Source: [Eubacterium] siraeum
GTDB lineage: Bacteria; Bacillota; Clostridia; Oscillospirales; Ruminococcaceae
Length of the DNA: 64,000 nt
NCBI GenBank assembly: GCA_025150425.1
Contig: CP102281.1
Location: forward strand, 558,001-622,000
Direction of reading: 5' to 3'
Part shown: piece after piece, positions 35,369 to 58,823 of the stretch
Layout: the number at the start of each line of letters is the position of its first letter
Position numbering within the stretch: position 1 is the stretch's first letter
Notes under the pieces: generated by a model
The model's database searches: none
What the model saw: the letters and a program-made list of their open reading frames with translations, nothing else
Told to the model about the DNA's origin: nothing
Made by a program: the position numbers and the translations under genes

Positions 35369-35940
35369 AACCGCCGTACATCTCTGTACGGCGGTCGTAG
35401 ACGGTCGATAAACTGATTGTTAGTAAAGTCACACAGTGAGATATATCGCCAACACCGCTGAAAGCATTTCCCGTACCGATAGGGAATTAATAATTTCGTG
35501 AGTGTATCTGTACAACTGCACAGACATTAACCTTTCAAAAAAACGCCACTAACCTGAGATATATGTACTAACCTGCGGACGTGTAGCGTTAAGCGTCCCT
35601 GCATCGACAAGATATACAATATTCCGGTGGTTATCCGAGTTCAGCCAACACCCCGACGGGGTGGGGGTGTGAGTAAGGAAAGAGGGAGCCACGAGGGAGA
35701 GAACCTAAGGGACAGGGAGAGGGGCTGTCAAGTCCCTTGTCCTGATCCCTTTGGTTGTCTCCCTCTTTCATATTGACAAGTGTACCCATTCGAATAGCGA
35801 ACCCGAGAAGTGCTGTCCGACAAAAAGAACTATCGGTAGCTTGCTATCATAGTCAAAGCTGAACGATATAGCAGAAGCATATCAAACAAAAGACTTTTTC
35901 TACAAACCGAAACCGCCGTACATCTCTGTACGGCGGTCGT
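35369..35940 (+). mobile_element. R1: terminator-nested non-coding repeat, copy 1
   Basis: The element core is 35399-35910 (512 bp). It is flanked by two identical 30-bp copies of a terminator hairpin (35369-35398 and 35911-35940; CCGCCGTACA pairing with TGTACGGCGG). The ilvC gene (minus) ends just to the right, so this is its terminator, duplicated; only the outer copy (35369) has the T tract on the minus strand. Core landmarks shared by all four copies: CACACAGTGA(G/A)ATAT on the left and GAACTATCGGTAGC near the right. Landmarks shared with R2 and R3: GGACGTGTAGCGTTAAGCGTCC and ACCCCGACGGGGT. A hairpin rich in AAAGAGGGAG/CTCCCTCTTT lies in the centre. No gene is present. Confidence 0.85.
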
Positions 35941-35972
35941 GTTGTAATATCCTTTTTTGAAAAACAGTAGGA

Positions 35973-37010
35973 TTACTTGCTGAACTTAGCGTCTGCAATT
36001 TCGTCCATAGACTTGCCTGCATCATCATTCCATGCATACAGCTTACGGATTTCCTTACCAACCTGCTCAAGCTGCTGTTCGCTTTCGATACGTCTTACTG
36101 CATTGAAGTGTGAACGACCCATCTTGTTCTCCATGATCCAGTTGCGAGCGAATGTACCATCCTGGATTTCGCCGAGAACCTTCTTCATTTCCTTCTTTGT
36201 TTCGTCTGTGATAAGTCTCTTACCAACCTCGTAGTCACCGAACTCGGCTGTATCGGAGATAGAATATCTCATCATCTGGAAACCGCCCTTGTAGATAAGG
36301 TCAACGATGAGCTTCATCTCGTGGATGCACTCGAAGTAAGCGTTCTGAGGATCGTAGCCTGCTTCAACAAGAGTTTCAAAGCCTGCCTTCATTAAGGCTG
36401 TAACACCGCCGCAGAGAACGCACTGTTCGCCGAAGAGGTCTGTTTCTGTTTCCATCTTGAATGTTGTCATAAGTACGCCGGCTCTTGAACCACCGATACC
36501 TGCGGCATAAGCAAGACCTGTGTCAAGCGCTCTGCCTGTAGCGTCCTGGTGAACTGCAACTAAGCAGGGAACGCCTCTGCCGATTGTGTACTCTGAACGT
36601 ACTGTGTGACCCGGTCCCTTAGGAGCAACCATGATAACATCAACGTCTTTGGGAGGTACGATCTGACCGAAGTGGATGTTGAAGCCGTGAGCAAATGCAA
36701 GTGTTTTGCCTGCTGTAAGGTTAGGCTCGATGCTCTGCTTGTAAAGGTCAGCCTGTCTTTCATCGTTGATAAGGATCATGATGATGTCAGCCTTAGCTGC
36801 TGCCTCTGCCGCTGTGTATACTTCAAAACCTGCAGCCTCAGCCTTAGCCCATGACTTTGAGCCGTTGTAAAGACCGATGATTACCTTAACGCCGCTGTCC
36901 TTTAAGTTAAGAGCGTGAGCGTGTCCCTGGCTGCCGTAACCGATTATTGCAACTGTCTTGCCGTCAAGCAGAGAAAGGTTGCAGTCTTCCTGATGATAAA
37001 GTTTTGCCAT
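35973..37010 (-). CDS. ilvC: Ketol-acid reductoisomerase
   Basis: 345 residues, class I length. [20 protein letters not shown] is the NADPH-binding Rossmann motif; [20 protein letters not shown] and [10 protein letters not shown], with [19 protein letters not shown], carry metal ligands. It performs the second step of valine, leucine and isoleucine synthesis. It lies 61 nt after ilvN. Confidence 0.97.
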
Positions 37011-37071
37011 TTTAAAGATCTCCTTTAAATTTGTTTTCGGAGTTTTGCCTCCGTGTATTAAAGCGTGGCTT

Positions 37072-37563
37072 TTACAGCTTCATAGAAGCCCCGCCTTTTT
37101 GCATTGCTATAGAGCCTGTACGGACGGTTTCCTTTATTCCGTACGGACGTAAAAGCTCCTCGAACGTTTTTATACGGGGAACGCTGTCGGATAATTCAAG
37201 CGTCATCGTATTTACCGTTATATCGGAAATTTTTGCCTTTGCTATCTCGGCGAGCGAGATAAGCTCAGCCCTCTGTGACGGCTGGCAGGCTACCTTTATA
37301 AGTACAAGCTCTCTTGATAAAAGCTCCTCCGCAGGCAGATGACGTACTTTTATAACGTCTATCAGCTTGTTGAGCTGTTTTTCAATCTGCTCCAAGGTAT
37401 ATGCCGTTCCGTCTGCGATAATTGTGATACGGGAGATTTTCTCGTCCTCTGTAACGCCTACCGCAAGGCTGTCTATATTGAAACCCCGTCTTGCGAAAAG
37501 TCCCGCAACTCTTGCGAGAACGCCTGCGTGGTTTTCTACAAGTATTGATATAGTATGCTTCAT
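37072..37563 (-). CDS. ilvN: Acetolactate synthase small subunit
   Basis: 163 residues with an N-terminal ACT domain ([32 protein letters not shown]) and a C-terminal AHAS-small domain. It gives valine feedback control of IlvB. It is 11 nt after ilvB. Confidence 0.95.
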
Positions 37564-37574
37564 AGGCTCACCCT

Positions 37575-39206
37575 TTACAGTATAGTCTTTTCATTTTCGG
37601 CTACTCTGACTTCAAGCAGATAACAGCCTTTCGACGAGAGCATCTCGTCAATCGCCTTGTCCGCATCGGCTATATCGGTAATTCTTTTTGCAGGTATGCC
37701 GTAGCTGTCAGCCAGCTTTATAAAATCGGGACTGCCGTCAAGGAAAACCGCTGTCAGCCTGTTGTCGTAACCGTTTGTCTGAAGCTCTCTTACCATACCA
37801 AGACGATTGTTGGTCATAACTATCACCTTTACCGCAATGTTATGCTGTATCATCGTCGCAAGCTCCATAAACTGCATCTGGAAGCTGCCGTCGCCGCATA
37901 TTGCGACAACCTCGCTGTCCGGACGTGCCGCCTTTGCACCGAGAGCGGCAGGAACGGAATAGCCCATTGTTCCCATACCGCCGGATGTTATGAATCGTCC
38001 GTTTTTAAGACCGATATTGTTGACGGTCCATATCTGATTCTGTCCTACATCGGCGCTTACAACGGAATTGTCCGGGAGCTTCTGTCCGAGAAGCCTTATG
38101 AAAGCCTTGGGATTTACACAACCCTCCGGTTCTTCTTCAATCGGCTTGTCCTGTGCTTTCTTTATCTCACTCAGTTCCTGCTTCCAGTCGTAGTGGTCGT
38201 AATTCTTCACACATTCAAGCAGCTGCTCGAGTATATTCTTTACATCGCCTACAACGGGTATCGTTGCGGCAAGGTTCTTGCCTATTTCCGCAGGGTCAAC
38301 ATCTATATGTATTACAGTTGCGCCCTCAAGTCTGCTTATTGCGGTGACCGCTCTGTCGCCCACTCTCGCACCGAGAAGTATCAGCAGGTCACAGTTGTTG
38401 ATAGCGTAGTTCGCACTCTTTACGCCGTGCATACCTATCATTCCGTAGAACAAAGGATTGTCCGCAGGAACACTGCTCATGCCCATCATTGTGTTGACAA
38501 CGGGTATATCCGTCACCTGCATGAACTCTCTCAGCAGATTTACCGCACCTGCGGTAAAGATACCACCGCCCGCACAGATAAGAGGCTTTTTGCTCTTTTC
38601 TATGGCGGCAACGGCACGCTTTATCTGCAGCTTGTTTCCCTGAATGCTGGGCTTATACGAGCGTATATCTACTGTTTTCGGATATTCAAAATCTATTACT
38701 GCCTTCTGAACGTCAAAAGGCATATCTATAAGCACAGGTCCCGGTCTGCCGGAGCCTGCGATGTAAAATGCGTTTTTGAAGATGACCGGCATTTCCGCAG
38801 GGTCTTTGACAAGATAGCTGTGCTTTACGAAAGGCTCAGCCGCACCTGTTATATCTGCCTCCTGGAAAACGTCACGTCCTATCTGTTCACAGCTTACCTG
38901 TCCTGTGATAAGCACCATAGGTATGCTGTCCATATGGGCGGTTGCGATTGCCGTGATAAGATTTGTCGCACCCGGTCCCGATGTTGCTATAGCAACGGCA
39001 GGCTTTCCGGTCATACGGGCATAACCGCTTGCGGCGTGTCCGCCGTTTACCTCGTGGCGCACAAGCACATGGCGTATATCCGAGCTTATAAGCTCGTCAT
39101 AAAACGGACATATAGCCGCACCCGGATAACCGAATACAGTAGTTATACCCTCCGCTTCGAGAGCCTTTACCATAGCTCTTGCAACCGTCATTCTTTCTGA
39201 CGCCAT
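37575..39206 (-). CDS. ilvB: Acetolactate synthase large subunit
   Basis: 543 residues, ThDP enzyme. VFGYPGAAICPFYDEL, catalytic Glu in VRHEVNGGHAASGYAR near residue 53, ALITGQVSCEQIG-type central region, and ThDP motif GDGSFQMQFMELATMIQHNI with NNRLGMVRE. First enzyme of branched-chain amino-acid synthesis. It leads the ilvBNC operon. Confidence 0.96.
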   Translation of the reverse strand: MASERMTVARAMVKALEAEGITTVFGYPGAAICPFYDELISSDIRHVLVRHEVNGGHAASGYARMTGKPAVAIATSGPGATNLITAIATAHMDSIPMVLITGQVSCEQIGRDVFQEADITGAAEPFVKHSYLVKDPAEMPVIFKNAFYIAGSGRPGPVLIDMPFDVQKAVIDFEYPKTVDIRSYKPSIQGNKLQIKRAVAAIEKSKKPLICAGGGIFTAGAVNLLREFMQVTDIPVVNTMMGMSSVPADNPLFYGMIGMHGVKSANYAINNCDLLILLGARVGDRAVTAISRLEGATVIHIDVDPAEIGKNLAATIPVVGDVKNILEQLLECVKNYDHYDWKQELSEIKKAQDKPIEEEPEGCVNPKAFIRLLGQKLPDNSVVSADVGQNQIWTVNNIGLKNGRFITSGGMGTMGYSVPAALGAKAARPDSEVVAICGDGSFQMQFMELATMIQHNIAVKVIVMTNNRLGMVRELQTNGYDNRLTAVFLDGSPDFIKLADSYGIPAKRITDIADADKAIDEMLSSKGCYLLEVRVAENEKTIL

Positions 39207-39537
39207 CTATCGACCTACCCCTTTATAAGTGTTGATGAATATACTGTATTTTTATACAGCAAAACCGCACGTTAAATTTTGTGCTTACAAATAATTATAA
39301 CCGCTTTACAAATAAAAGTCAAGATTTCTTTGCATATAAATAGTCGCCTTGAGGGCGGTTTTCAGTATATTTTTCACATAAATACCGCTGTCGGTGACGT
39401 GATGTATATTTTGCATACTCTTACAGCCGTATTTTTTTGCCGATAAACTTAAATTCAACTGTATATCTGCCGATAAATATACAGAGTAATTTTGCCTGCG
39501 GCGTTAAAATGCGGTTCAGGCGGAAAAGAGGCTTTTA
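39207..39537. other. Intergenic region between ilvB and the 39.5-kb gene
   Basis: 331 bp. It contains the ilvB promoter on the minus strand; the leader is short (about 80 nt) and has only a CTGTAT/ATACAG stem (39244-39259). No T-box or other riboswitch shape is visible. The right 200 bp hold nothing I recognise. Confidence 0.6.
39294..39322 (-). promoter_or_regulatory. Promoter TTGACT-17-TATAAT of ilvBNC
   Basis: Minus strand: -35 at 39317-39322 and -10 at 39294-39299. Confidence 0.8.
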
Positions 39538-40401
39538 ATGGCGTTTGAACATCTGTGCGGTCAGGTCATGACCGACAGTAACGGAACGACTTACATAATA
39601 TCCGATAATTTTTCGGTCATATATCCCGGTGATGCCCACCCCGACGTATACGAGTGGGCTGATATTTCTGCGGTTAAAATCGACAAAAGCAGTATCACTG
39701 TCACTACAGGAAAGCAGACATATCACATACCCGACAGGGCGTTTACGGGCAGGGCGCAGTTTACAGCGGCAAAGACGCTGATATTGTCACAGGTATCCGA
39801 TAAGGAAACAGTGTGTGACGTTAGCGTAGAGGTGCTTCCCGACAAGCGCTTCTATTCAAATTACGATATACCCGACTCAGCTGTTTTTGCAAAAGGCGAA
39901 TACAATCCCAAAGAGATACGTTCTTCCGTGCTGTCGCTCGTTCTGGGTAAAATGGGCAGACTGCTCTGGTGCATAGGGATACTTGCGTGCGTTGCCACTG
40001 CAATTATTTTTCAGATGTATATCGGTTTTGCACAGGATACATGGTGGTATCTGTCCATAGGTACATTCTTCTGCGCCGTAGGTGCGGTAGTGCTGACCTA
40101 TCTTGTAATGGTGCTTATCGCAAAGATAAAATACTCGGGTCTTATCAGAAGCTGTGCGGATAACGATGAAACGATAACGTTTGCCGTATGCCCCGCAGGA
40201 GTATCCGCCGCAGAGGAGAGCGTGTACAGCCCGCACGAGATAATTCGTTTCGGAATGAATGATAATTATATAGAAACCTCGTCAATGTTCATAGTCACAA
40301 GAGGGAACGCACCGCTTGTATGGATACCGAAATCGCTTTTCGACGGAGCGGCTCTTGACAGGATAGAACAGTACCTTGCGCTCGGAACGCAGGATAAATA
40401 A
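39538..40401 (+). CDS. Unrecognised protein with two membrane segments between beta-rich domains
   Basis: 287 residues. A beta-rich N-terminal domain (about 1-100) with KIDKSSITVTTGKQTYHIPD precedes two membrane segments (about 143-195: LLWCIGILACVATAIIFQMY and YLSIGTFFCAVGAVVLTYLV) and a second beta-rich domain that could be PH-like, as in YcxB-like proteins. This is pattern inference only. Site GAGG before ATG 39538. It is 20 nt before the next gene. Confidence 0.7.
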   Translation: MAFEHLCGQVMTDSNGTTYIISDNFSVIYPGDAHPDVYEWADISAVKIDKSSITVTTGKQTYHIPDRAFTGRAQFTAAKTLILSQVSDKETVCDVSVEVLPDKRFYSNYDIPDSAVFAKGEYNPKEIRSSVLSLVLGKMGRLLWCIGILACVATAIIFQMYIGFAQDTWWYLSIGTFFCAVGAVVLTYLVMVLIAKIKYSGLIRSCADNDETITFAVCPAGVSAAEESVYSPHEIIRFGMNDNYIETSSMFIVTRGNAPLVWIPKSLFDGAALDRIEQYLALGTQDK

Positions 40402-40421
40402 GCGGAAAGGAACAGGGGATA

Positions 40422-41885
40422 ATGAGTGAAAGAATACCCGAGGTAGTTTGTGAACGGATAAATATAAACGAAAGCGAAGTGCTTGTGTTCTCGGTCAAAA
40501 ACGGACTTTCAAAGATAGGCATTTGCAGGATTAATTCCGAATATGATAAATACTGTCTTTATTCTCACGATGAGCCGGTAATGGCAATAAGCGGAGGAAT
40601 GAACGATGATGACGCAGACAAGGTAATAAGCGAATACGGCAGTGCGTCGGGCGGCTCGATAATTGCCGACAGCATAGACAGAGCGTATGAAAAGCTGGCG
40701 GCGGGAGGCTCTCCCGAATATGCCCTTGAGCCGCTTATGAGATTGCTTTCTGACGGACTTTATGCGGTAAGCTATGTTGAAACATATCCCACGGCAGGAG
40801 AAAATATGTTTTTCTGGTCGGGATACGGCGTGTCAAAACAGCTCAGAAACAGCAGCAGGAATATCAGATTAATCGGCGATAAGGCGTACAGCGCACCGTT
40901 TCTGATTCCTACCGAAAAGCCCTCGACCTATGACCCCTCGCTGATAAAAAAGGCAAGCGTGAAAGGAACGAGAAACGGAGATCTGTTCGGAATATCCCTT
41001 CATTTTTCGGGTCTTTATTCATTACTGCTGAAGGGACATTATGCGGCTTGTGCGGCGGCTATAGAAAACCGGCCTTTTTATACGGTACAGATACAGCCGC
41101 TTAAAAATATATGGAAGATAACGGACGAAAACGAGGAGATTAAATCCATAGGTTTTTCCTCTGCATCATTCAGAGTGCCGTTTGAATCTCTGACAAAGGA
41201 GCAGCTGAGAATCGGACTTACCGCAAGAAAATACGTTACACCGGATACCTACGATACGATAAAGCAGAAGCTGGGGATAGTGCCGAAGTCAAGCCAGAAG
41301 AGGATACCGAAGCAGCTTGACATATTCTCCGAGCGTTATCCCGATGCGGATATGGTAGCCTGCGCACAAGGCATAGACGAGCTTACAAAGCCTATGCTTG
41401 ACGCTCTGCTTGCAGGTCAGACCGAGCTTGACGGCAAGGTAATAATTTCGGAGAATTATTATAACAGCGTAACTGCCGCCTGCAACTACCTGCGTTATCA
41501 CAGCAAGGACGATTTTATTGATTTTGCGCTGAACGTTATGCGAAATCCGGAGCTTTCTGCCACCTACTCATACGTTGCCTCCAGTCTTGCAAAGGTGCGT
41601 GACGAGCGTGTAAAGCAGTTCTTCACTGAGGTGAAGAATTCGGGCGATGCCGGATATTCAAAGATAATCGGCACGGCACGTTCCTATATCGACAACTATG
41701 ACAAGTACGAGGAAATCTCATCGGAGGATTTCTTCAACGCACTCCCCGAGCCGAAACAGGAAAGAAAGCGTAAGGAAATAATTCATCTGACCGGCGACAC
41801 GAAAAGCGAAGACAGGATAAGCTCCGAAACCGCAAAAATGATGGCTGCCCACATAGCCACAATGATGGATAATAAAAGCAAATAA
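40422..41885 (+). CDS. Unrecognised 487-residue cytoplasmic protein
   Basis: No signal, membrane segment or catalytic motif is visible. The N-terminal half is beta-rich and globular; the second half is helical (about 300-460: DKVVIS-type boundary, TAACNYLRYHSKDDFIDFAL, YSYVASSLAKVRDERVKQFF), reminiscent of HEAT-like packing. Site AAAGGAA. It probably forms an operon with the two-TM gene 20 nt upstream; the function is unknown. Confidence 0.7.
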   Translation: MSERIPEVVCERININESEVLVFSVKNGLSKIGICRINSEYDKYCLYSHDEPVMAISGGMNDDDADKVISEYGSASGGSIIADSIDRAYEKLAAGGSPEYALEPLMRLLSDGLYAVSYVETYPTAGENMFFWSGYGVSKQLRNSSRNIRLIGDKAYSAPFLIPTEKPSTYDPSLIKKASVKGTRNGDLFGISLHFSGLYSLLLKGHYAACAAAIENRPFYTVQIQPLKNIWKITDENEEIKSIGFSSASFRVPFESLTKEQLRIGLTARKYVTPDTYDTIKQKLGIVPKSSQKRIPKQLDIFSERYPDADMVACAQGIDELTKPMLDALLAGQTELDGKVIISENYYNSVTAACNYLRYHSKDDFIDFALNVMRNPELSATYSYVASSLAKVRDERVKQFFTEVKNSGDAGYSKIIGTARSYIDNYDKYEEISSEDFFNALPEPKQERKRKEIIHLTGDTKSEDRISSETAKMMAAHIATMMDNKSK

Positions 41886-41892
41886 AAACATT

Positions 41893-41922
41893 ACCGCCGT
41901 GTACAATTCCGTACACGGCGGT
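41893..41922 (+). terminator. Terminator before the Rnf operon
   Basis: ACCGCCGTGTAC (41893-41904), loop aattcc, GTACACGGCGGT (41911-41922): a perfect 12-bp stem followed by ttgc. Confidence 0.8.
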
Positions 41923-42007
41923 TTGCTGCCTGAGGACGGTATTGCTTGTCCGGATGATCATTCGCAAAAATTGTACGGCAGGAAATTTCCCCGCCACGCA
42001 TTTTTTC

Positions 42008-42036
42008 TTGACTATAAGCATTAATTAGTGTAAAAT
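42008..42036 (+). promoter_or_regulatory. Promoter TTGACT-17-TAAAAT of the Rnf operon
   Basis: -35 at 42008-42013 and -10 at 42031-42036, 47 nt before rnfC. Confidence 0.8.
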
Positions 42037-42083
42037 AAAATTGTATAACTATAAAACGGGAATGAATCCGGAGGGTATAATTT

Positions 42084-43382: not shown

Positions 43383-43393
43383 GGGTATAATAT

Positions 43394-44341: not shown

Positions 44342-44925
44342 ACGTACTGAAAAAAATCAAGCCCGTGCTTGTATTGTCAATTATCTGTACTCTTATTTGC
44401 GCACTGCTGATAGTCACATATAATCTGACTTATGTAGATACGTCCGGTGTGCTGACGGATAATCTGAAAGCAGGCTGTATCGCCGCAGACGGCGAGGGCG
44501 AATATGCACTTATCACCGATAAGGCGGCGGCAAAGCTGGACGGCGAAGAATTCGGTAGTATCTCAAAGATAGTTAAGAACAAGACAAAAGGCACGTTCCT
44601 TTTTGAAACCGTTGTTGACGGCTATGCCGCAGACGGCATCGACGCAGTAATAGCGATAGACAAAAACGGCGCAGTAAGCGGTATAAGCATAATCGCACTC
44701 GGCGAAACTCCCAGTCTTGGCTCAAAAATAAACGACGATGCATTCCTGCAGAGGTTCTACGGCGTGAAGTCGGATATTTCGATAGTCAAGTCAGGGCCGA
44801 AAAACGAAAACGAGGTACAGGGAATTACAGGCTCGACGCTTTCCTCAAAAGGTATGGCGAAGGCTGTAAATCTTGCCGTAAAGGCATACTCGGTAATGGA
44901 TAAGGAGGTACAGCCGAATGAGTAA
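44338..44925 (+). CDS. rnfG: Rnf complex subunit RnfG
   Basis: 195 residues. One N-terminal membrane anchor, then an FMN-binding domain ending in VQGITGSTLSSKGMAKAVN, where the Thr of the STxS motif receives FMN covalently. Overlaps its neighbours by 4 and 8 nt. Confidence 0.94.
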   Translation: MNVLKKIKPVLVLSIICTLICALLIVTYNLTYVDTSGVLTDNLKAGCIAADGEGEYALITDKAAAKLDGEEFGSISKIVKNKTKGTFLFETVVDGYAADGIDAVIAIDKNGAVSGISIIALGETPSLGSKINDDAFLQRFYGVKSDISIVKSGPKNENEVQGITGSTLSSKGMAKAVNLAVKAYSVMDKEVQPNE

Positions 44926-46197: not shown

Positions 46198-46212
46198 GCG
46201 AAAGGAAAGACG

Positions 46213-47040: not shown

Positions 47041-47079
47041 TCCTATTATTTCAGGCAAACGAAAGGAAAACGACAAGAG

Positions 47080-47667: not shown

Positions 47668-47681
47668 AAGGACGTAACAAA

Positions 47682-48404: not shown

Positions 48405-48410
48405 AAAATA

Positions 48411-49589
48411 ATGAAAATTACAGAGTTGTTTTCACTCGGAGCAAATGAAATTAAAAACCGTCTGCCTATGGCAACTGCGGCAAAGTTTTCTACTCAGAAG
48501 ATAGAGGGCAAAAGCGGAAAAAGTCTGCTCGCCGCCTGCATATCACGATATAACTGCCGTATCATTCCGATAGCGGCGATCATAATGATAATATGCACGT
48601 TTATGTCGGTTCTGTTCGAGAATGTAATTACCGACGGCGGCTCGGCAGAGATTGCAGGAGAGGTGCTGATACTGTTCACCGCAGTGTGCGGTGTAGGCTT
48701 CGGATTTTATTTCAGCGGAAAATACCCGTCATATTATCCTTATGTATTCTGGGGACTTTATCTGATTTCATACTGTATAAAGGTCACCGGCTGTATTTCC
48801 GGGGCGACCGGACTTTCGCAGACGGCGGTAACAATAATGGTTTTCGCCGCCGTTCCCGTTTTCGCACCTGCCGCATCGGCGTTCTTCCTCGGCATAATCC
48901 CCGTGTGGTATACGATACTCTGTAATATAAATGATGTTTCGGGCTATTACCCGTTCACAGTGTGGGGACTTGCCTTGCTCGGCTTTTTTATATCCTGCTC
49001 GATGTACAGCCTTTACACCGCCAGAATGATAAATTCAAAGCGTATAAAGGACGACAAAGAGCGGATGAAGATGTCGGCGGTCATGGACAGCCGTACTGAC
49101 CTTTATAACAGGGCATACGGCATAGAAAAGGCTACAGAGCTTCTCAGAAGCGGCAACAGCATTGCACTGCTGCTTGTCGATATAGACAATTTTGCGGAAT
49201 ACAACCGCATTTACGGCACGGAAAAAGCCGATGAAGTGCTTTTTGCCGTAGCCAACTGCGTAAAGATAATATCAAAGCCTAAGACGGATATTATCTGCAG
49301 ATATGAGGGCGATACTATCCTTGTCTGCCTTACGGTAAAAGCCGATAAGGAGGCAATTGTACTCAGCGAGGAGATACGCAGTGTCGTAAAGGATATGAAG
49401 ATACCGTTCCCCGAAGCAAGCCGTTACCGTAACATAACAGCGACAGTAAGCGCCGCAAGAGGTATGCCCGGCGATACCTATGACGATATATATGTCAGGG
49501 CGATGCGCTCCCAGAGCGTTGCAAAACGCATAGGCGGAAACTGCATAGCATTCAAGGAACACACCTTCAGACCCGACGGAGAAAAATAA
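48411..49589 (+). CDS. Membrane protein with degenerate GGDEF domain
   Basis: 392 residues. Six hydrophobic segments (about 45-205) precede a GGDEF-type domain: MDSRTDLYNRAYGIEKATEL, LLVDIDNFAEYN, and the active-site loop CRYEGDTILVCL. The catalytic loop reads EGDTI where GGDEF is needed, so cyclase activity is doubtful; it may act as a nucleotide sensor or by protein contact. Six bases after the paralogue pair, so in one operon. Confidence 0.85.
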   Translation: MKITELFSLGANEIKNRLPMATAAKFSTQKIEGKSGKSLLAACISRYNCRIIPIAAIIMIICTFMSVLFENVITDGGSAEIAGEVLILFTAVCGVGFGFYFSGKYPSYYPYVFWGLYLISYCIKVTGCISGATGLSQTAVTIMVFAAVPVFAPAASAFFLGIIPVWYTILCNINDVSGYYPFTVWGLALLGFFISCSMYSLYTARMINSKRIKDDKERMKMSAVMDSRTDLYNRAYGIEKATELLRSGNSIALLLVDIDNFAEYNRIYGTEKADEVLFAVANCVKIISKPKTDIICRYEGDTILVCLTVKADKEAIVLSEEIRSVVKDMKIPFPEASRYRNITATVSAARGMPGDTYDDIYVRAMRSQSVAKRIGGNCIAFKEHTFRPDGEK

Positions 49590-49596
49590 ACACAAA

Positions 49597-50259
49597 AAAA
49601 CCGATGCTTTTTTGGCATCGGTTTTTCGGACTGACGATAAACTGATTGTTATTATAGCCACACAGTGAAATATAGCACCATCACCGCTTAAAACACTTTC
49701 AGTGCCGACAAGGCGTTAATATTTTCGTGAGTGTATCAGTGCAACTGCACTGACATTGACCCTTCAAAAAAACGCCACTAACCTAAGATATATGTACTAA
49801 TCTGCGGACGTGTAGCGTTAAGCGTCCCTGCACTTACAGGATATACAATGTTCCGGTGGTTATTCGAGTTTAGCCAACACCCCGACGGGGTGGGGGTGTG
49901 AGTAAGGAAAGAGAGAGCCACGAGGGAGAGAACCTAAGAGTATAGGGCTGAGTCTTGCTTACGCAAGCACTCGGACGTTTCGCTCTGCTTCACTGGGCTG
50001 TCAAGTCCAGCGTAGCTTTAGCGGAGTGCACGAGCCTTGCGTAAGCGAGGCTCAGACTTGCACCTAGTCTCTTTGGTTCTTTCCCTCGTTAATATTGACA
50101 GGTGTATTAATTTGAATAGCGAACCCGAGAAGTGTTATCCGACAAACAAAACTATCGGTAGCTTGCTATCATAGCCTGAACTGAATGATATAACAGAAGT
50201 ACATCAAATACAATACTTTTCCTAAAGCTAAAACCGATGCTTTTTGGGCATCGGTTTTT
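49597..50259 (+). mobile_element. R2: terminator-nested non-coding repeat, copy 2
   Basis: Core 49627-50229 (603 bp), flanked by two 30-bp copies of a terminator hairpin (49597-49626 and 50230-50259; CCGATGC pairing with GCATCGG, T tract on both strands), one mismatch apart. The genes on both sides converge here, so this was a shared bidirectional terminator. The core follows R1 throughout, but the central hairpin is about 90 bp longer, with arms around 49940-50080 that still pair (GCTTACGCAAG with CTTGCGTAAGC). Confidence 0.85.
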
Positions 50260-50271
50260 TAATCTCCTGCT

Positions 50272-51297
50272 TTACAGCACCTTTATAAGTTCGTCATAAA
50301 TCGGCGCATAATGCTCGTCCGTTATGCCGAAATCCATTTCCTTGTACGACCATACCGCACGGGCGATATGAAGCTGTTCAAATGCTTCGTTTATCATTCT
50401 GAACCAGTTCAGCGTGCTTTCGGGGTCAGCTCTGTCTATTACGCCGTATTCACCGCAGTAAAGAGGAAGATTCAGCTTTTCCGCTACCTTTACAGCGTCG
50501 GCAAACATCTTTACAAAGAAGCCGCTGTCAATCATACCTGTTATACCGTCAAAATCCGAAGTGAAATCCTCACCGAAATATTTTCTGCTGTCCGCAAGAA
50601 GCTTTTCGGCTGTAGCAGGGAATTTTGTGCGGTATGACTTATCAAGGCGATCTACCCAGCCGGCACCCTGATGAGTGAAAACAAGCGGATTGTAGCAGTG
50701 GAATGTCAGCACTATGTTTTCATCCCAATCAATGTCAAGGAGCGTCAGCCCGTAAATGCTCGAGTTGAAGATACCGCCGATGACTATTTTTGTTTCGGGC
50801 GCTATTTTTCTTATCTCCTTTACGGTACGGCTTGCTATCTTGTTCCACGAATCTGTGAAATCTGCGCTTGTGATTTCGTTGAGCAGTTCGAATGCTATAT
50901 GACTGTCATTTCCGTAACGCCTTGCTATCTCCTGCCACAGATACACAAACTGATCCTGCAGCTTTTCGTTGCCGAAAAATCCGCAATAGCTCGGATCGTC
51001 AAAGATATATCCGCAGGTCTTGTGCAGATCGATAACGATATTAAGACCGTGCTTTTTGCACCAGCCGACACAGCTTTCAATGTAAGCCATTCCGCTTTCG
51101 ATGATTTCGCCGTCATCCGTCTGGATAACATTGTAATCTACAGGCATACGGACGTGATCAAGTCCCATTGTAGCTATCTTTTCAATATCCTTTTCGGTTA
51201 TGAAGGTGGAATAATGTTCGTCATTGTACTTGCTTCCACACTGCGAGATCCAACCGCCCAGGTCTATACCCTTATAAAATCCGTCAAAATTTCTCAT
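50272..51297 (-). CDS. GH5 cellulase-family glycoside hydrolase
   Basis: 341 residues from ATG 51297 (site AAGGAGG). FYKGIDLGGWISQCG, ATMGLDHVRMPVDYNV, acid/base Glu in AFELLNEIT near residue 141, and nucleophile Glu in LYCGEYGV near 285 give the GH5 fold. There is no signal peptide, so it acts on oligosaccharides inside the cell. A similar short GH5 group hydrolyses beta-glucans; substrate open. Confidence 0.9.
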   Translation of the reverse strand: MRNFDGFYKGIDLGGWISQCGSKYNDEHYSTFITEKDIEKIATMGLDHVRMPVDYNVIQTDDGEIIESGMAYIESCVGWCKKHGLNIVIDLHKTCGYIFDDPSYCGFFGNEKLQDQFVYLWQEIARRYGNDSHIAFELLNEITSADFTDSWNKIASRTVKEIRKIAPETKIVIGGIFNSSIYGLTLLDIDWDENIVLTFHCYNPLVFTHQGAGWVDRLDKSYRTKFPATAEKLLADSRKYFGEDFTSDFDGITGMIDSGFFVKMFADAVKVAEKLNLPLYCGEYGVIDRADPESTLNWFRMINEAFEQLHIARAVWSYKEMDFGITDEHYAPIYDELIKVL

Positions 51298-51429
51298 GGT
51301 TTTCCTCCTTGTTCTTTTCGGCACCGTACAGGGTCACCCCCTGCAATTTCCCTTGTTTACAGCTTTATTATAACAGCAGGCAGGAAAAATCAATACCTGA
51401 ATTGTGGCGGATTTTATATATTTGTGTGA

Positions 51430-52998: not shown

Positions 52999-53061
52999 AA
53001 AAATTACCTCCTTGTTCTATTCTGCGATAATTGAAGAAGAATATACACCGATAAGATATTC

Positions 53062-53090
53062 TTGACACAGCAGGCAAAGAGTTCTATAAT
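53062..53090 (+). promoter_or_regulatory. Consensus promoter TTGACA-17-TATAAT of the aminopeptidase
   Basis: -35 at 53062-53067 and -10 at 53085-53090. It decides the start of the next gene, because an in-frame TTG at 53062 falls inside the promoter. Confidence 0.85.
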
Positions 53091-53178
53091 AGTTAATGTC
53101 GGTTATATAATGCTAACGGATAATTCGCCGTATAATGCAGAGAATAACGGGAAAACCGTAAACCGACGGAGGTTACAG

Positions 53179-54408
53179 ATGGATAAAAATATGTTAAGCG
53201 AATATGCAAAATTGATGGTAAAGGTCGGCGCTAATGTTCAGAAAGGGCAGAAGGTACGCCTTTATGCCGAGGTTGACCAATACGAGCTTGCCACCCTTGT
53301 TGCGAAGGAGTGCTACAATGCCGGCGCAAGCTATGTTGAGATGTTCTGGAGCTGTGGCGCTGTAGAAAGACTTCATTACGAAAATGCTTCGGTAGAAACG
53401 CTTGGTACTGTTCTTAGCTGGGAAGAAGAAAGACAGAAGCAGATGGTGAAGGATCTGCCTGCAAGGATTTTTATAGAATCTGCCGACCCTGATGAGCTGA
53501 GCGGTATTCCTGCGGATGTAATTTCAACGGTAGGCAGGATGCGTTCAAAGGTGCTTAAGAAATACCGTGATGAGATAGACGGCAAGCACCAGTGGCTGAT
53601 AGTTGCCGCCGCTTCACCCAAATGGGCAAAGAAGGTGTTCCCGGACGATGACAGCGATACCGCAGTGGAAAAACTCTGGAACGCAATTTTCTCCTGCGTT
53701 TATCTTGACGGCAATAGAAACTGGGAGCAGGTGTGGAAACAGCATACCGATACTATGAGGGAAAAAGCCGATTGGCTCAACAGCAAGTGCTTTAAATCCC
53801 TCAGATACAGTAGCAGTAACGGCACGTATTTCACCGTACAGCTTATTCCCGGAGCAAAGTGGTGCGGTGCGGCTGATATAAACCGTGTAAACGGAGCGGC
53901 TTACGTTCCGAATATGCCGACCGAGGAAGTGTTCATAAGCCCGATGAAGGGCAAGTGCGAGGGCAAACTTGTCGCCACGAAGCCTCTGAGTTGGTCGGGC
54001 AACCTGATAGACGGCTTTGAGGTAGAATTCACAAACGGCAGGGTATCCGGCTGTAAAGCAAAGCAGGGCGAGGAAATACTGAAGAAGATGTTCGCTATGG
54101 ATAATGGTGCTTCAATGCTCGGCGAGGTTGCGCTTGTTCCTAAGGAATCTCCGATAAACCGTTCCGGACTTCTGTTTATGAATACCCTATTTGATGAGAA
54201 TGCCTGCTGTCACGTTGCGGTAGGCGAGGGCTTTCAGGAGGTTATCGAGGGAGCTGAAAATATGACTCTTGACGAGATTCACGCTCTTGGCGTAAACGAT
54301 TCTATAATACACGTTGACTTTATGATAGGCTCAGATGACCTTGATATAACTGGCATTTGCGAGGACGGCACTGAGATACCCGTGTTCAGAAACGGAACGT
54401 GGGCGTGA
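53179..54408 (+). CDS. M29 aminopeptidase (AmpS/aminopeptidase T type)
   Basis: 409 residues from ATG 53179 (site CGGAGG). YAKLMVKVGANVQKGQKVRL at the N-terminus, then FEVEFTNGRVS, EVALVPKESPINRSGLLFMN with the metal Glu, and IHVDFMIGSDDLDITG near the C-terminus with His and Asp ligands are M29 signatures. It removes N-terminal residues from peptides in the cytoplasm, using Co or Zn. Confidence 0.93.
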   Translation: MDKNMLSEYAKLMVKVGANVQKGQKVRLYAEVDQYELATLVAKECYNAGASYVEMFWSCGAVERLHYENASVETLGTVLSWEEERQKQMVKDLPARIFIESADPDELSGIPADVISTVGRMRSKVLKKYRDEIDGKHQWLIVAAASPKWAKKVFPDDDSDTAVEKLWNAIFSCVYLDGNRNWEQVWKQHTDTMREKADWLNSKCFKSLRYSSSNGTYFTVQLIPGAKWCGAADINRVNGAAYVPNMPTEEVFISPMKGKCEGKLVATKPLSWSGNLIDGFEVEFTNGRVSGCKAKQGEEILKKMFAMDNGASMLGEVALVPKESPINRSGLLFMNTLFDENACCHVAVGEGFQEVIEGAENMTLDEIHALGVNDSIIHVDFMIGSDDLDITGICEDGTEIPVFRNGTWA

Positions 54409-54473
54409 AAGGATAAACCCACAGTATATAATTTGTCGAATTTATTGAATTTTCAAATTACATTGCGGTAGTA

Positions 54474-54502
54474 TTGCATTGCTGTCAAAAGTATGCTAAA
54501 AT
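54474..54502 (+). promoter_or_regulatory. Promoter TTGCAT-17-TAAAAT of the LytTR gene
   Basis: -35 at 54474-54479 and -10 at 54497-54502, 43 nt before the start. Confidence 0.6.
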
Positions 54503-54545
54503 ATAAGCGTAGATAATTTCCGAAACGGTAAAGGATCGATCAGTA

Positions 54546-55256
54546 ATGACAATAGCGATATGCGATGACAGTGTTATAGACTGCTTACTGTCTAAATTTC
54601 TGATAAGTGAATATTTCAAGAAGCGTAAAATGACGTGCAGTATCATTACCTACGAAACAGGCGCAAAACTGCTTTCCGATTTTGAAAACGGAACAGTTTT
54701 CGATATTGTTTTTATGGATATATATGTCGGGGATGAGTTGGGGATAGACGTTGCAGGAAAACTCAGAAATGAGGGTTACGATAACCTGCTGATATTCTCT
54801 ACTATCACTCCCGAATATGCAATAGCAAGCTACAGCGTCAAGGCAAACGGATATATTCTGAAGCCATTCAGCGGCGAAAGAATAGAAAGCGTTCTTAACA
54901 GAGTGCTTGAGCATTATGTAAGGGACTATATCAGGATAAAGGTACGCAACAGCTATGTCAATATTATGTACAGCGATATTATCTATATCGAAAGCCGCAA
55001 TAACCGCTGTATACTTCACACTGCCGATGAAGAATATCCGCTTTATATGAAGCTTGATGATATAGAACAGCAGATGCTTGACGAAAAGTCACGCTTTCTC
55101 AGATGCCACAGGAGCTATATCATCAATATGGATCATGTCACGGCGGTTGACGAACAGTTCAGATTGGATAACGGCGACAGCGTACTGATACGGAGCAGGA
55201 GCAGAGCGCAGATTAAAAAGACTTACCTTTGCTACTCAGGAAAAGGTAAGGCATAA
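54546..55256 (+). CDS. LytTR-family response regulator
   Basis: 236 residues. The receiver domain has AICDDS near residue 5, phospho-Asp in DIVFMDIYVG near 59, and the Lys in YILKPF near 105. The C-terminal LytTR DNA-binding domain has IIYIESRNNRCILHT and FLRCHRSYIINMDHV. No histidine kinase is adjacent, so its partner lies elsewhere. Control of peptide-signalled or surface genes is usual for the family. Confidence 0.93.
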   Translation: MTIAICDDSVIDCLLSKFLISEYFKKRKMTCSIITYETGAKLLSDFENGTVFDIVFMDIYVGDELGIDVAGKLRNEGYDNLLIFSTITPEYAIASYSVKANGYILKPFSGERIESVLNRVLEHYVRDYIRIKVRNSYVNIMYSDIIYIESRNNRCILHTADEEYPLYMKLDDIEQQMLDEKSRFLRCHRSYIINMDHVTAVDEQFRLDNGDSVLIRSRSRAQIKKTYLCYSGKGKA

Positions 55257-55262
55257 GAACGA

Positions 55263-55827
55263 GAAGCATCCGGATAAAACCGGATGCTTCAGTTTGTTGA
55301 TAAACCGATTATTATTAAATCCCACACAGTGAAATATATCGCCAACACCGCCGAAAACAGTTTCCGTGTCGACACGGCATTAATAATTTCGTGAGTGCAT
55401 CATTACAACTGCACTGACATTAACCTTTCAAAAAAACGCCACTAACCTAAGATATATGTACTAATATGCGGACGTGTAGCGTTAAGCGTCCCTGCATTGA
55501 CAGGATATACAATGTTCAGGTAGTTTTACGAGTTTAACCAACACCCCAGCGGGGTAAGGGTATGGGTAAGGAAAGAGGGAGCCAAGAGGGAGAAAACCTA
55601 AGGGACAGGGATAGGGGCAGCAGTCCCTCTCCCTGATCCCTTTGGTTGTCTCCCTCTTTCATATTGACAGGTGTACCCACTCGAATAGCGAAACCGAGAA
55701 GTGCTATCCGACAAAAAGAACTATCGGTAGCTTGCTATCGTGGTCTAAGCTGAATGATATTTTAGAAGTACATCAAATAATAAATATTTTCTACAATCTG
55801 AAGCTCCCGGATAAAACCGGATGCTTC
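55263..55827 (+). mobile_element. R3: terminator-nested non-coding repeat, copy 3
   Basis: Core 55291-55799 (509 bp), flanked by two 28-bp copies of the hairpin at 55263-55290 and 55800-55827 (GAAGCATCCGG-ataaaa-CCGGATGCTTC; two mismatches in the right copy). Convergent genes lie on both sides. The core matches R1 from end to end; the left hairpin changes from TTCCC/GGGAA to CCGTG/CACGG and the central one keeps AAAGAGGGAG/CTCCCTCTTT. Short frames inside are not conserved among copies. Confidence 0.85.
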
Positions 55828-55829
55828 AT

Positions 55830-56705
55830 TTATATATTCTCTCTTATAAACTCATAAATCAAACGGTATACATTTTCCCTCTGCACTTCCTGCAGTATAC
55901 TGTGACGCATTCCGTCAAATATTTCAAGTCTTACATCAAAGCCATTTTCGATAAGAATACCGGCTTTTTCTTTTGCATAAGCGCCTTTATCGCCCACCAT
56001 ATCCTGTGTTCCGCTCATTAAAAGAAAGGGCGGTTTCGGTGAAACATTCTTAAGATAATCCTTGCACTGTACTTCGCTTGCAAGCTGTAAAAAGCTCCTG
56101 TAAAAGCGACAACTGTACATTTTGTTGGTATACGGGAGAGTTTCATAATATAAAGCACGCTCAAGGTCTGATGTCACCCAGGATACCGTGCATTTTTCCG
56201 GAAAAGGCTCCGCAACCTTTCCGAACAGCTTCAGGAATACGTCCATACTCGGAGCATCTGCGCCTTTTTCGGAAATTTCCGCTTCTATGTCCGACAAAAG
56301 CGCTTTCGTATCATGTATATACGGACAGCCCGTAAGTATAACTCCGCTGTAAAGTGAGCTATCGCAGTGACAAATAACATATTGAGCCATCTGTGCGCCA
56401 AGGCTGTGACCGAGCAGAAACAGCGGTGTGTCACTTTCCGAGTGAACGTATGACGAAAAATCACCGCATTCCTTTGCCGCAGTCTGAACGATATTGTCTA
56501 TATCCGCAGGCAGTGCCGTCCTTCCGTGTTCACGGTATTCGCAAAGATATACCGAAACTCCTTTGGCTGTAATATATTCGGCGAACTGCTCATAGTATTC
56601 CGACATTTCGCCAAGCCCGTGAATTATCTGTATTTTCGCCTTTTCGTTATCGGAAAGCCATTTCTTGCAGTGCATTCCCTTGTATTCAAATTCCTGTGCA
56701 GTCAT
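55830..56705 (-). CDS. Alpha/beta hydrolase, lysophospholipase-like
   Basis: 291 residues from ATG 56705 (site GGAG). IHGLGEMSEYYEQFAEYI, nucleophile Ser in LLGHSLGAQM, Asp in MSGTQDMVGDKG and His in DGMRHSILQE make a full catalytic triad. The HGLGE and GHSLG layout resembles monoglyceride lipase/lysophospholipase enzymes. An upstream in-frame extension overlaps the chemoreceptor and has no site. Confidence 0.9.
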   Translation of the reverse strand: MTAQEFEYKGMHCKKWLSDNEKAKIQIIHGLGEMSEYYEQFAEYITAKGVSVYLCEYREHGRTALPADIDNIVQTAAKECGDFSSYVHSESDTPLFLLGHSLGAQMAQYVICHCDSSLYSGVILTGCPYIHDTKALLSDIEAEISEKGADAPSMDVFLKLFGKVAEPFPEKCTVSWVTSDLERALYYETLPYTNKMYSCRFYRSFLQLASEVQCKDYLKNVSPKPPFLLMSGTQDMVGDKGAYAKEKAGILIENGFDVRLEIFDGMRHSILQEVQRENVYRLIYEFIRENI

Positions 56706-56723
56706 AAAATTCTCCGTAAAAAC

Positions 56724-56748
56724 AAAGCAGGCATTTTCAGCCTGCTTT
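56724..56748 (-). terminator. Terminator of the chemoreceptor gene
   Basis: AAAGCAGGC (56724-56732) pairs with GCCTGCTTT (56740-56748); the minus strand continues gttttta. Confidence 0.8.
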
Positions 56749-56763
56749 TGTTTGCTATTTCTG

Positions 56764-58095
56764 TTATTCTTCCATAGGGCCTTCAAGATGAATCTGACCG
56801 TCCTCACGCAGATGGAACTGCTTGACCATCTTCTGAAGCTCTTTCGCCTGAGCGGCTGTAAGTGCGCTTGCACTTGCACTTTCCTCAGCTGTGGCGGCAT
56901 TGTTCTGAACTACCGCTGAAATCTGGCTTACGCTTGAAAGCACTTGGTCAACCATGGTTGCCTGCTGTGCCGAGCCGTCCGATATTTCGTTTATAAGTGA
57001 GTTTGCGTTGCTGAAACGTTCCATAACACTTTCGATAGTCTGTGCGGTTGAATCTGCGATAGCCGTGCCGTTTGAAACCGCCTCTATAGTGCTGCCGATA
57101 AGCTCGCTTGTTGTCTGTGCGGCTTCTGCGGACTTGCTCGCAAGGTTTCTTACCTCGTCTGCAACAACGGCGAATCCCTTGCCGGCTTCACCTGCTCTTG
57201 CGGCCTCTACAGCGGCATTAAGGGCAAGTATATTTGTCTGGAATGCGATGTTGTCGATAGTGTTGATAATCTTCTTGATCTCGGCTGATTTTTCGTCTAT
57301 AATCTTCATAGCGGCAAGCATCTTCTGCATTTCTGCGTTGCCTTCCTTAAGGTCAGTGGTTGCCGTATCTGAAATTTCGCTTACATTCTTTGCGTTTTCG
57401 GCATTCTTGTTAACTCTGCCGGAAATATCGCTTACATAGTCTGAAAGCTCACGGATGGATGCTTCCTGTTCGCTTGTACCCTGTGCAAGTGCCTGCGAAC
57501 CGCTTGATACCTGCTCGGAGGCATCGTATAGCATAGTTCCTGCCTTCTGTATTCTTGAAAACGAGTCATTAAGATTTACAAGTATCTGCTCAAATGCCGA
57601 CTTTATGGGAGTAAATTCGCCCTTGTAATCATAGTTAATGTTAAAACTGATGTTGCCGTATGACATCTGAGTCAGCAGATATGTAAGCTCATCGACCATT
57701 TTTTTGAGATACCACTTTGCAGTATTGAGCGAGCCTGCGAGCTTTCCTATATCGCTGTCGTTTATCTTGACATCAAATTCAGCGGAAAGAATACCCTCTG
57801 AGAAGTTATTAAGTTCGTTGCTGATTTTTCTGATAGGCTTTACTATTGCTTTTCTTACATAAATGCAAAGCAGGATAAATGCCGCAGTAACGATAAGCGA
57901 AATGCCCTCGGTAATCAGTGACAGCATTATCGAAGAATGATAAACAGGGTCGTCGTGACCTGCCATTGTCAGAATGTTGACAGTGCATACGGCAATGGTA
58001 GCCAGCATCATTATACAGCAGACAACGCATAAAAATGTTATTACAACTACCTGGCTCTGCACTTTATTTTTTAACCAGCCTTTATTTTTTTTCAT
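56764..58095 (-). CDS. Methyl-accepting chemotaxis protein with minimal external sensor
   Basis: 443 residues from ATG 58095 (site AGAGGTG). Two membrane segments (about 14-36 and 50-75) are separated by only about 12 residues, so no outside ligand domain exists. HAMP-like helices follow, then the signalling domain with the tip [20 protein letters not shown] and [17 protein letters not shown]. It should relay an internal or membrane signal to CheA/CheW. Confidence 0.93.
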
Positions 58096-58131
58096 AAGAA
58101 ACACCTCTTGAACTTACATTTTGATAATCTG

Positions 58132-58160
58132 ATTTTATCACAAATGCTGTAATAAGTCAA
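58132..58160 (-). promoter_or_regulatory. Promoter TTGACT-17-TAAAAT of the chemoreceptor
   Basis: Minus strand: -35 at 58155-58160 and -10 at 58132-58137. Confidence 0.75.
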
Positions 58161-58226
58161 GAAGTAAAGCGGTGTGTTTGGTGGAATACACCAAAAAAAC
58201 GTTAATAACTGTACAAGTTGCACGAA

Positions 58227-58823
58227 AGCCGCCATGATATACTCATAGCGGCACAGACTGTCGAAAACCGATTATTATTAAAGCCACACAGTGAAATATA
58301 TCACCAACACCACCTGAAACACCTTCCTTGCCGACAAGGAGTTAATATTTTCGTGAGTGTATCTGTGCAACTGCACTGACATTGACCTTTCAAAAAAACG
58401 CACTATCCTTCGAAAATCACCACCTCACTCACTTCTTTCCAAAGTACTGTTTGTTTCGCATCCGCACAGTCACCCTCGCTTTTCGTAGGGGAGGAGCTCG
58501 CTCCTCCCGAAATATTGTAGTGCTTATCATAAACAGTTTGTAAGGAATTTAAGCTTTGGGTTACGGTTGATAGTTGACAGATTATAAACTCGGTGAATGG
58601 TCAGAAGTTAGTGCAACGGGAGGGGCAAGCCTCCTCCCCTACGAAAAGATAAGATGATAGCAAATGTAATAAATAGCAGTGCAAATAAAAATAATGCGGC
58701 TGTCCGATAAAAAGAACTATCGGTAGCCTTACTATCATAGTCTAAGCTGAATGATATAACAGAAGTACATCAAACTAAAGATTTTTTCTAAAAGCTGAGC
58801 CGCCATGATATACTCATAGCGGC
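58227..58823 (+). mobile_element. R4: terminator-nested repeat, copy 4, with a replaced centre
   Basis: Core 58253-58797 (545 bp), flanked by two identical 26-bp hairpin copies (58227-58252 and 58798-58823; AGCCGC... pairing with ...GCGGC). The hairpin is the terminator of the queT gene (minus). The left 150 bp and right 100 bp follow R1-R3, but about 300 bp in the centre (58403-58700) are unrelated and contain a separate inverted repeat. Confidence 0.8.
58479..58648. repeat. Inverted repeat nested in R4
   Basis: Left arm 58479-58509 and right arm 58617-58648 pair closely (CTTTTCGTAGGGGAGGAG with CTCCTCCCCTACGAAAAG). Each arm is itself a G/C-rich hairpin (GGGAGGAG/CTCCTCCC). It looks like a small MITE-like insertion that replaced the usual R hairpin. 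Confidence 0.6.

What the first reader, a model, noticed from the sequence alone, without database searches (positions are those of the whole stretch)
35369..58823. Dispersed non-coding element inserted in intrinsic terminators, with the whole hairpin duplicated
Four copies (R1 35369-35940, R2 49597-50259, R3 55263-55827, R4 58227-58823) share a non-coding core of 509-603 bp. Each lies between two copies of a 26-30 bp terminator hairpin. The hairpin sequence differs completely among the four loci, but within each locus the two copies are identical or differ by one or two bases. The hairpin therefore belongs to the target, and it is duplicated as a target-site duplication would be. All four sit at gene 3' ends and in the same orientation on the + strand. 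Group IIC introns also favour terminators, but they carry a ribozyme core and leave no duplication. No coding capacity is shared, so a helper in trans would be needed. The mechanism (transposase, retro-copying, or recombination at hairpins) is inference.
Basis: partly seen in the sequence, partly recalled or inferred. Interest (0 to 1): 0.92.

Follow-up and report, generated by a model that had tools for sequence, protein, structure and literature searches.

The report
Mobile elements that duplicate terminator hairpins
Short gene-less mobile DNA pieces in a gut bacterium insert at the hairpins that end genes and leave a copy of the hairpin on both sides, a behaviour that traces to transposases of the IS1182 family.

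Summary
The genome has 40 regions of this family (18 with a hairpin at both ends) plus shorter elements with the same ends. Of 97 ends found by motif, 75 abut a palindrome (control 58 of 2000); 69 have their outer flank repeated inwards (control 5 of 1000); in 48 of 53 elements the repeat is a palindrome. IS1182-family insertion sequences in Clostridia, Bacillus and Rhizobium have like ends and duplicate whole hairpins. Two same-species pairs for the R family and ten empty records at three insertion-sequence loci show one hairpin without the element, two with it. Six of seven identical insertion sequences in one genome made repeats of 21-30 bp, so the enzyme does not fix the length. Terminator targeting by IS1182 members and long repeats are in print; whole-hairpin duplication I found only as a hypothetical pathway. 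Three profile searches found no fitting helper here. How the enzyme reads the hairpin is inference.

The parts
35368..35397 (.). R1 left copy of the duplicated hairpin (30 bp; 35398 is either the last base of the repeat or the first of the element)
   Evidence: identical to the right copy (D7); folds as DNA, z -8.1
35398..35909 (+). R1 element; right terminal repeat 35895-35909 on the minus strand
35910..35940 (.). R1 right copy of the hairpin, at the 3' end of a ketol-acid reductoisomerase gene (35973-37010, minus)
49597..49626 (.). R2 left copy of the hairpin, downstream of a GGDEF gene (48411-49589, plus)
   Evidence: 97% of 30 (D9)
49627..50229 (+). R2 element (603 bp), ends decayed
50230..50259 (.). 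R2 right copy of the hairpin, downstream of a GH5 cellulase-like gene (50272-51324, minus)
55264..55289 (.). R3 left copy of the hairpin, downstream of a LytTR response-regulator gene (54546-55256, plus)
   Evidence: (D8)
55290..55800 (+). R3 element; terminal repeats 55290-55304 (plus) and 55786-55800 (minus)
55801..55826 (.). R3 right copy of the hairpin, two differences from the left copy; downstream of an alpha/beta-hydrolase gene (55830-56900, minus)
58227..58252 (.). R4 left copy of the hairpin
   Evidence: identical to the right copy over 26 bp (D6)
58254..58797 (+). R4 element; terminal repeats 58254-58268 (plus) and 58783-58797 (minus); middle (about 58402-58698) unrelated to R1-R3
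58798..58823 (.). R4 right copy of the hairpin, at the 3' end of a QueT-transporter-like gene (58841-59341, minus)

Best explanation
R1-R4 are non-autonomous transposons (MITE-like) that were moved in trans by a DDE transposase of the IS1182 family. SHOWN by sequence: CAG-type terminal inverted repeats shared with IS1182-family insertion sequences; insertion at palindromic hairpins of unrelated sequence, many of them terminator-like; exactly one hairpin in empty sites and two in filled sites; full-length IS1182-family elements doing the same in other bacteria; a duplication whose length differs from site to site for one and the same insertion sequence and which is centred on the palindrome axis. 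[quoted passage not shown] Also INFERRED: the gene-proximal hairpin loses its T-tract because the element begins CAG, while the far copy keeps it, so termination is kept but moved past the element. The helper that moved the copies of this genome is not in it as far as I could search.
For: Terminal repeats: 97 motif places against 6 for the reversed motif in the own genome. 75 of 97 ends abut a palindrome, control 58 of 2000. 69 of 97 have the outer flank repeated inwards, control 5 of 1000. 53 distinct elements, repeat palindromic in 48, control 62 of 2000. Two insertions into one hairpin leave three copies (1336733-1337497). Insertion sequences: 16 of 24 examined loci have a direct repeat at both ends; in 15 it is a whole palindrome, in L191 one arm and the loop; ends are CAG-type except CAA in L170 and GAG in L192. 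12 of 12 aligned transposases match the NCBIfam IS1182 model and Pfam DDE domains. In the same genus, degenerate IS1182-type genes lie behind such ends abutting hairpins (L150, L159; L217, L220, L231, L234). Empty sites: 10 of 10 records at three loci; own element 484663-485167 against MT835546.1; MT835595.1 against the own genome. Length: seven copies of 1581 bp, one single sequence, six with exact repeats of 30, 24, 24, 23, 22, 21 bp. Axis: repeat centre on the palindrome axis in 41 of 69, within 1 nt in 60 of 69, when the axis is searched freely over 12 nt each way.
Against: 22 of 40 R-family regions and 28 of 97 motif ends lack the duplication at the thresholds used. The own genome has no profile match to the 12 transposases, no PF13751 match, and its one PF05598 gene has no such ends; other transposase families were not searched. 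One of seven identical insertion sequences has unlike hairpins on its two sides (L236). Eight of 24 loci showed no direct repeat (one of them, L174, was resolved later as duplicating; L199 lies at a record start). Six copies of a distant IS1182 member in G306 show none, and 4-bp repeats are on record for others. Repeat length follows stem span only moderately (Spearman 0.53 in 65 sites).
Confidence: 0.92

Rival explanations
1. Same family, but no hairpin structure is read: a transposase dimer binds the two arms of the palindrome as ordinary duplex DNA and cuts at a somewhat loose distance, so the repeat is centred on the dyad without any cruciform.
For: Centring on the axis (41 of 69 exactly, 60 of 69 within 1 nt) is what a symmetric dimer would also give, and length follows stem span only moderately (Spearman 0.53; 0.23 with the whole palindrome).
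Against: Targets share no sequence that a dimer could bind; for identical insertion sequences the repeat varies from 21 to 30 bp with the target; the repeat exceeds the G+C-rich stem by 2-6 bp in 50 of 65 sites.
Confidence: 0.3
2. Retro-copying: a SINE-like RNA inserted by a reverse transcriptase at terminators, as group IIC introns insert, with staggered nicks giving the duplication.
For: Terminators are also group IIC targets (recalled); the interior folds as RNA better than shuffles.
Against: Terminal inverted repeats shared with DDE insertion sequences that leave the same kind of repeat; no group II intron or other Rfam match at gathering in the window. Reverse transcriptases were not searched for in the genome.
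Confidence: 0.02
3. Recombination or gene conversion between hairpins carried an element from place to place, hairpin included.
For: Two copies show exchange: unlike hairpins round one G269 copy (L236) and exchanged interiors between strains at 483212-483740.
Against: Hairpins at different loci are unrelated and already present once in empty sites.
Confidence: 0.02
4. Hairpin replacement as in IS1272, with the second hairpin gained later.
For: IS1272 belongs to the same family and targets hairpins (PMC4923244 passages; PMC5678879). L148 sits between two arms of a palindrome without a repeat (my reading).
Against: Filled sites keep the complete hairpin twice and empty sites have it once.
Confidence: 0.02

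Closest known systems
IS1272 / TnSha1 (IS1182 family); Furi et al. 2016 PMC4923244 (passages) and Wan et al. 2017 PMC5678879 (passages; section 29 part 1)
   Same: IS1182 family, 16-bp terminal repeats, insertion at hairpins including terminators without sequence preference.
   Different: IS1272 is reported to remove the hairpin or part of it and leave no duplication. Wan et al. [quoted passage not shown]
ISCbo5 (IS1182 family); PMC3098183 (passages)
   Same: All insertion sites but one are hairpins at gene ends, likely terminators.
   Different: An autonomous element; the passages that I saw do not say that the hairpin is duplicated.
MITEPye1 (Paracoccus yeei); PMC11578231 (passages)
   Same: Gene-less element with terminal repeats like those of IS1182-family insertion sequences.
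   Different: Flanked by 4-bp direct repeats, 1-3 copies per chromosome, no hairpin duplication mentioned in the passages.
IS1182-family direct repeats of 2-60 bp, quoted from ISfinder in PMC7335449 (passage)
   Same: Long and variable direct repeats are on record for the family.
   Different: The passage does not tie repeat length to a duplicated hairpin; ISfinder itself was not seen.
IS1182-family elements on plasmids of A. pseudofirmus (annotated ISBspe1 family), B. subtilis, B. pumilus, Brevibacillus borstelensis and Rhizobium leguminosarum
   Same: CAG-type ends and exact palindromic direct repeats of 18-28 bp; the working model for the helper.
   Different: Autonomous, with a transposase gene; interior unrelated.
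Group IIC introns (recalled)
   Same: Prefer intrinsic terminators.
   Different: Ribozyme core and reverse transcriptase, no target duplication; no Rfam match here.

Membership tests
MITE (non-autonomous DDE transposon) | No transposase gene inside | tested here: met
   Longest stop-free frame of the 16-copy majority sequence is 74 codons
MITE (non-autonomous DDE transposon) | Terminal inverted repeats | tested here: met
   Degenerate, asymmetric, about 15 bp; R2 ends decayed
MITE (non-autonomous DDE transposon) | Flanking target duplication shown against empty sites | tested here: met
   Two same-species pairs for the R family; not available for R1-R4 themselves
MITE (non-autonomous DDE transposon) | Small size (classically under about 300-600 bp; recalled) | tested here: inconclusive
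   R type mostly about 500-640 bp, one of 834; other group about 165-385 bp
IS1182-derived | Ends shared with IS1182-family insertion sequences | tested here: met
   CAG-type ends in L167-L169, L173, L176, L180, L186 and others; same-genus degenerate copies L150, L159, L217, L220, L231, L234
IS1182-derived | Interior derived from an IS1182 element | not tested
   No comparison of interiors with insertion sequences was made
IS1182-derived | Helper transposase in the same genome | tested here: not met
   No match to the 12-transposase profile or PF13751; the one PF05598 gene lacks such ends
IS1182-derived | Movement in trans by an IS1182 transposase | not testable with these tools
   Needs a transposition assay
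IS1272-type hairpin replacement | Hairpin removed on insertion, no duplication | tested here: not met
   Two hairpins in filled sites, one in empty ones
Group IIC intron | Ribozyme core, no target duplication | tested here: not met
   No Rfam match at gathering; targets duplicated

The most novel reading that the evidence does not exclude
A broad branch of the IS1182 family works by a structure-set stagger: the DDE transposase reads an extruded terminator hairpin and joins at both feet of the stem, so the length and sequence of the duplication are dictated by the folded shape of the target and not by the enzyme. Insertion thereby keeps a working terminator while turning the element into a 3' extension of the host transcript. 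In this gut species the elements have also spread a conserved, structured, RNA-like core of unknown role.
Probability: 0.45. Interest if true: 0.78.

Novelty: new variant of a known kind. Interest (0 to 1): 0.62.

Why it matters
Most DDE transposases leave duplications of a fixed few bases (established knowledge, recalled). Here identical insertion sequences leave duplications of different lengths, each matching the palindrome that was hit, which makes recognition of a folded target directly testable. It turns a pathway drawn only as a possibility (Wan et al. 2017, pathway b) into one backed by empty sites in two phyla. It also suggests how dozens of elements can sit at gene ends without removing terminators, and gives annotators a simple signature, CAG-type ends abutting paired hairpins.

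Tried and rejected
Rfam at gathering and at relaxed thresholds gave nothing credible: 0 matches in the window; 20 weak matches to R1, nearly all microRNA hairpins, none reaching its gathering score. The own genome's only DUF772 gene as helper: no matching ends or duplication. ORFs beside same-genus ends as autonomous copies: six were translated and read to me as ordinary host proteins; the Pfam check of them failed on another entry and was not repeated. Distant IS1182 members in G306, six copies fetched: no hairpin duplication. PDB search with the transposase profile: 0 matches at E up to 1. RNA structure of the core: 96 predicted pairs but only 3 with changes on both sides, so no RNA claim is made. 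Tree of 22 transposases: the duplicating ones cluster (2 label changes, shuffled mean 5.4, 1 of 500 shuffles as low), but the non-duplicating rows are long branches, so one origin is not shown. Sister contigs for empty sites of R1-R4 themselves: none usable. Total palindrome span as predictor of repeat length: weak (Spearman 0.23). Group IIC, CRISPR-type and HUH mechanisms were considered and dropped, on the terminal repeats and DDE transposases; only the Rfam test bears on the first, the other two were not searched.
Full report
CHECK. R1-R4 are present as described. Each lies between two hairpins that are identical or differ by one or two bases inside the hairpin, and all eight hairpins fold well as DNA. 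R4 shares only its two ends with the others. The whole genome (2.69 Mb, one contig) gives 55 matching pieces for R1. From the loci I assembled 40 regions of at least 100 bp. The hairpin stands directly at both ends in 18 of 40: 17 by script, plus 1336938, whose repeat runs into a neighbouring element; a further region passed by the script, 2694035, is a longer repeat that is no hairpin.

ANATOMY. Lining up the copies shows degenerate terminal inverted repeats. Left ends read about CAG(A/T)(C/T)TGTCGA(A/T)AAAC; right ends, read inwards, about CAG(N)TTGTAGAAAAAG. A motif search of the genome gives 97 places with at most one mismatch, against 6 for the motif read backwards. They bound at least two groups of elements with different interiors: the R type and a shorter one of about 165-385 bp. 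75 of 97 ends abut a palindrome of at least 6 net pairs, against 58 of 2000 random places.

STATISTICS. For each of the 97 ends I asked whether the 40 bp outside recur 50-1000 bp inwards: 69 of 97 do at score 14 or more, against 5 of 1000 random positions of the held DNA. These collapse to 53 elements. The repeat is 15-40 bp (median 27), identical in 30 of 53, palindromic with at least 6 net pairs in 48 of 53 (62 of 2000 random 27-mers), with the axis within 1 nt of its centre in 42 of 53. The other 28 ends gave no such repeat; some are likely chance matches inside genes, others decayed or in AT-rich targets, not sorted one by one. At 1336733-1337497 two elements in a row are separated and flanked by three copies of one hairpin, that is, two insertions into the same hairpin.

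WHO MOVES THEM. Among 71 genomes of the genus, 23 have the exact motif, seven others than the own genome with 13-59 copies, against control counts of 0-2 per strand. PF05598, the N-terminal domain of IS1182-type transposases, occurs in 18 of 71. In L159 and L150 such a gene lies directly behind an end of this type (CAG and CAA) that abuts a hairpin; L217, L220, L231 and L234 are further degenerate cases (L219 and L221 there are the same places as L150 and L159). A class-level search with the L159 N-terminus matched 48 of 391 genomes. Of 24 insertion-sequence loci examined, 16 have a direct repeat at both ends; in 15 it is a whole palindrome, in L191 one arm and the loop. They include five plasmid records of A. 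pseudofirmus, B. subtilis, Brevibacillus, Rhizobium and B. pumilus. The eight without are L148, L151, L152, L156, L163, L174, L190 and L199; L174 was later resolved as duplicating and L199 lies at a record start. Ends differ somewhat: CAA in L170, GAG in L192. All 12 aligned transposases match the NCBIfam IS1182 model and Pfam DDE domains. The own genome has no match to that profile, so its elements look orphaned; 15 other genomes of the genus do match.

EMPTY SITES. Three insertion-sequence loci were compared with records lacking the element: B. pumilus pBP-T2 (1548-bp element, 28-bp repeat) against both other matching plasmids; R. leguminosarum p_3 (1527 bp, 23 bp) against 3 of the 104 other records holding the flank; B. 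subtilis 2RL2-3 (1557 bp, 19 bp) against 5 of 6 other records (the sixth holds the insertion sequence). In 10 of 10 there is one hairpin; the Rhizobium hairpins differ by one base, and one B. pumilus record has a 1-bp shift in the T-run. For the R family two same-species cases exist. The own element 484663-485167 lies between two copies of a 24-bp hairpin that is single in MT835546.1 (59 of 60 printed left bases and 79 of 79 right bases alike). MT835595.1 carries an R-type element between two hairpins where the own genome has one hairpin (the three hairpins differ by a few bases, and the left flank has a length difference 80 bp further out). 'Same species' and 'bacterial contig' are my inference: these records are labelled Bacteriophage sp. 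but match the chromosome at about 95-99% over the long flank stretches.

MECHANISM. Seven copies of a 1581-bp insertion sequence in genome G269 are identical letter for letter; six have exact repeats of 30, 24, 24, 23, 22 and 21 bp, each its own palindrome; the seventh has unlike hairpins on its two sides. The enzyme therefore does not fix the length. Over 73 element sites, 71 have a clean repeat and 69 a palindrome; its axis, searched freely over 12 nt each way, falls on the repeat's centre in 41 and within 1 nt in 60 of 69. The repeat exceeds the G+C-rich stem by 2-6 bp in 50 of 65 usable sites, Spearman 0.53 with stem span, only 0.23 with the whole palindrome. [quoted passage not shown] This is pathway b, which Wan et al. 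2017 drew as a possibility while describing hairpin replacement for IS1272 (PMC5678879, section 29 part 1). A symmetric dimer on duplex DNA remains the main rival. In the 7 nt after the hairpin T averages 1.9 on the element side and 3.9 and 4.0 on the two outer sides (4.8 in the better direction, which favours the outer side by construction). That termination is thereby moved past the element is inference.

KNOWN. Hairpin and terminator targeting by IS1182 members is in print: IS1272/TnSha1 (PMC4923244, passages) and ISCbo5 (PMC3098183, passages). A range of 2-60 bp for direct repeats is quoted from ISfinder (PMC7335449, passage). An IS1182-type MITE with 4-bp repeats exists (PMC11578231, passages), as does ISPse1 with 4 bp (PMC3281130, passages), so the family is mixed. 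A 2025 paper says that IS1182 members act with or without duplication and may recognise a target structure (PMC12056078, passages). My ten paper searches listed no report that I could recognise as showing whole-hairpin duplication with empty sites. They cover open-licence papers only, I opened eight papers, and ISfinder was not seen.

CORE. The R-type interior is more conserved than its ends (82-96% against 74-78% pairwise in 40-column blocks of 16 copies), and R1 folds as RNA better than shuffles (z -5.0 plus strand, -2.5 minus strand), but covariation is slight (3 of 96 pairs). Besides the own genome, 2 of 70 genus genomes match R1, one of them weakly. A scan of named genomes with a 21-nt core word found two places, both in a MAG called Ruminiclostridium sp. 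RGIG9130, which I equate with G060 from the shared contig length of 213225. The species of the window itself is not named by any search. The role of the core is open.

Noticed in passing
window 35399-35909 and 15 further copies (alignment A2): The interior of the R-type elements is more conserved than the ends and folds as RNA better than shuffles; no Rfam family fits.
   Followed up: partly
own genome 483212-483740 against L261:1460-2110: At one site both strains have an element between the same hairpins and with the same left end but with different interiors, as if interiors were exchanged between elements.
   Followed up: no
L258 against own genome 2340969-2341524: An R-type element seems to sit at the same place in the own genome and in G060, so some insertions predate the split of the two species (by eye).
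   Followed up: no
L236 (G269:C8:20500-22500): One of seven identical insertion sequences has different hairpins on its two sides, as after recombination between copies.
   Followed up: no
L148 (G061:C53): An IS1182-family element appears to lie between the two arms of a palindrome without a direct repeat, like the IS1272 mode (by eye).
   Followed up: no
L186, about 1370-1460 and 2900-2970: The two hairpin copies round this insertion sequence have loops in opposite orientation.
   Followed up: no
window 58470-58496 and 58631-58657: The private middle of R4 carries an inverted repeat of 27 nt arms, 85% complementary.
   Followed up: no
records MT835546.1, MT836233.1, MT836711.1, MT835532.1 (L261, L260, L262, L264): Fecal scaffolds labelled Bacteriophage sp. 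match this bacterial chromosome at about 95-99% over long stretches and look like bacterial contigs.
   Followed up: partly
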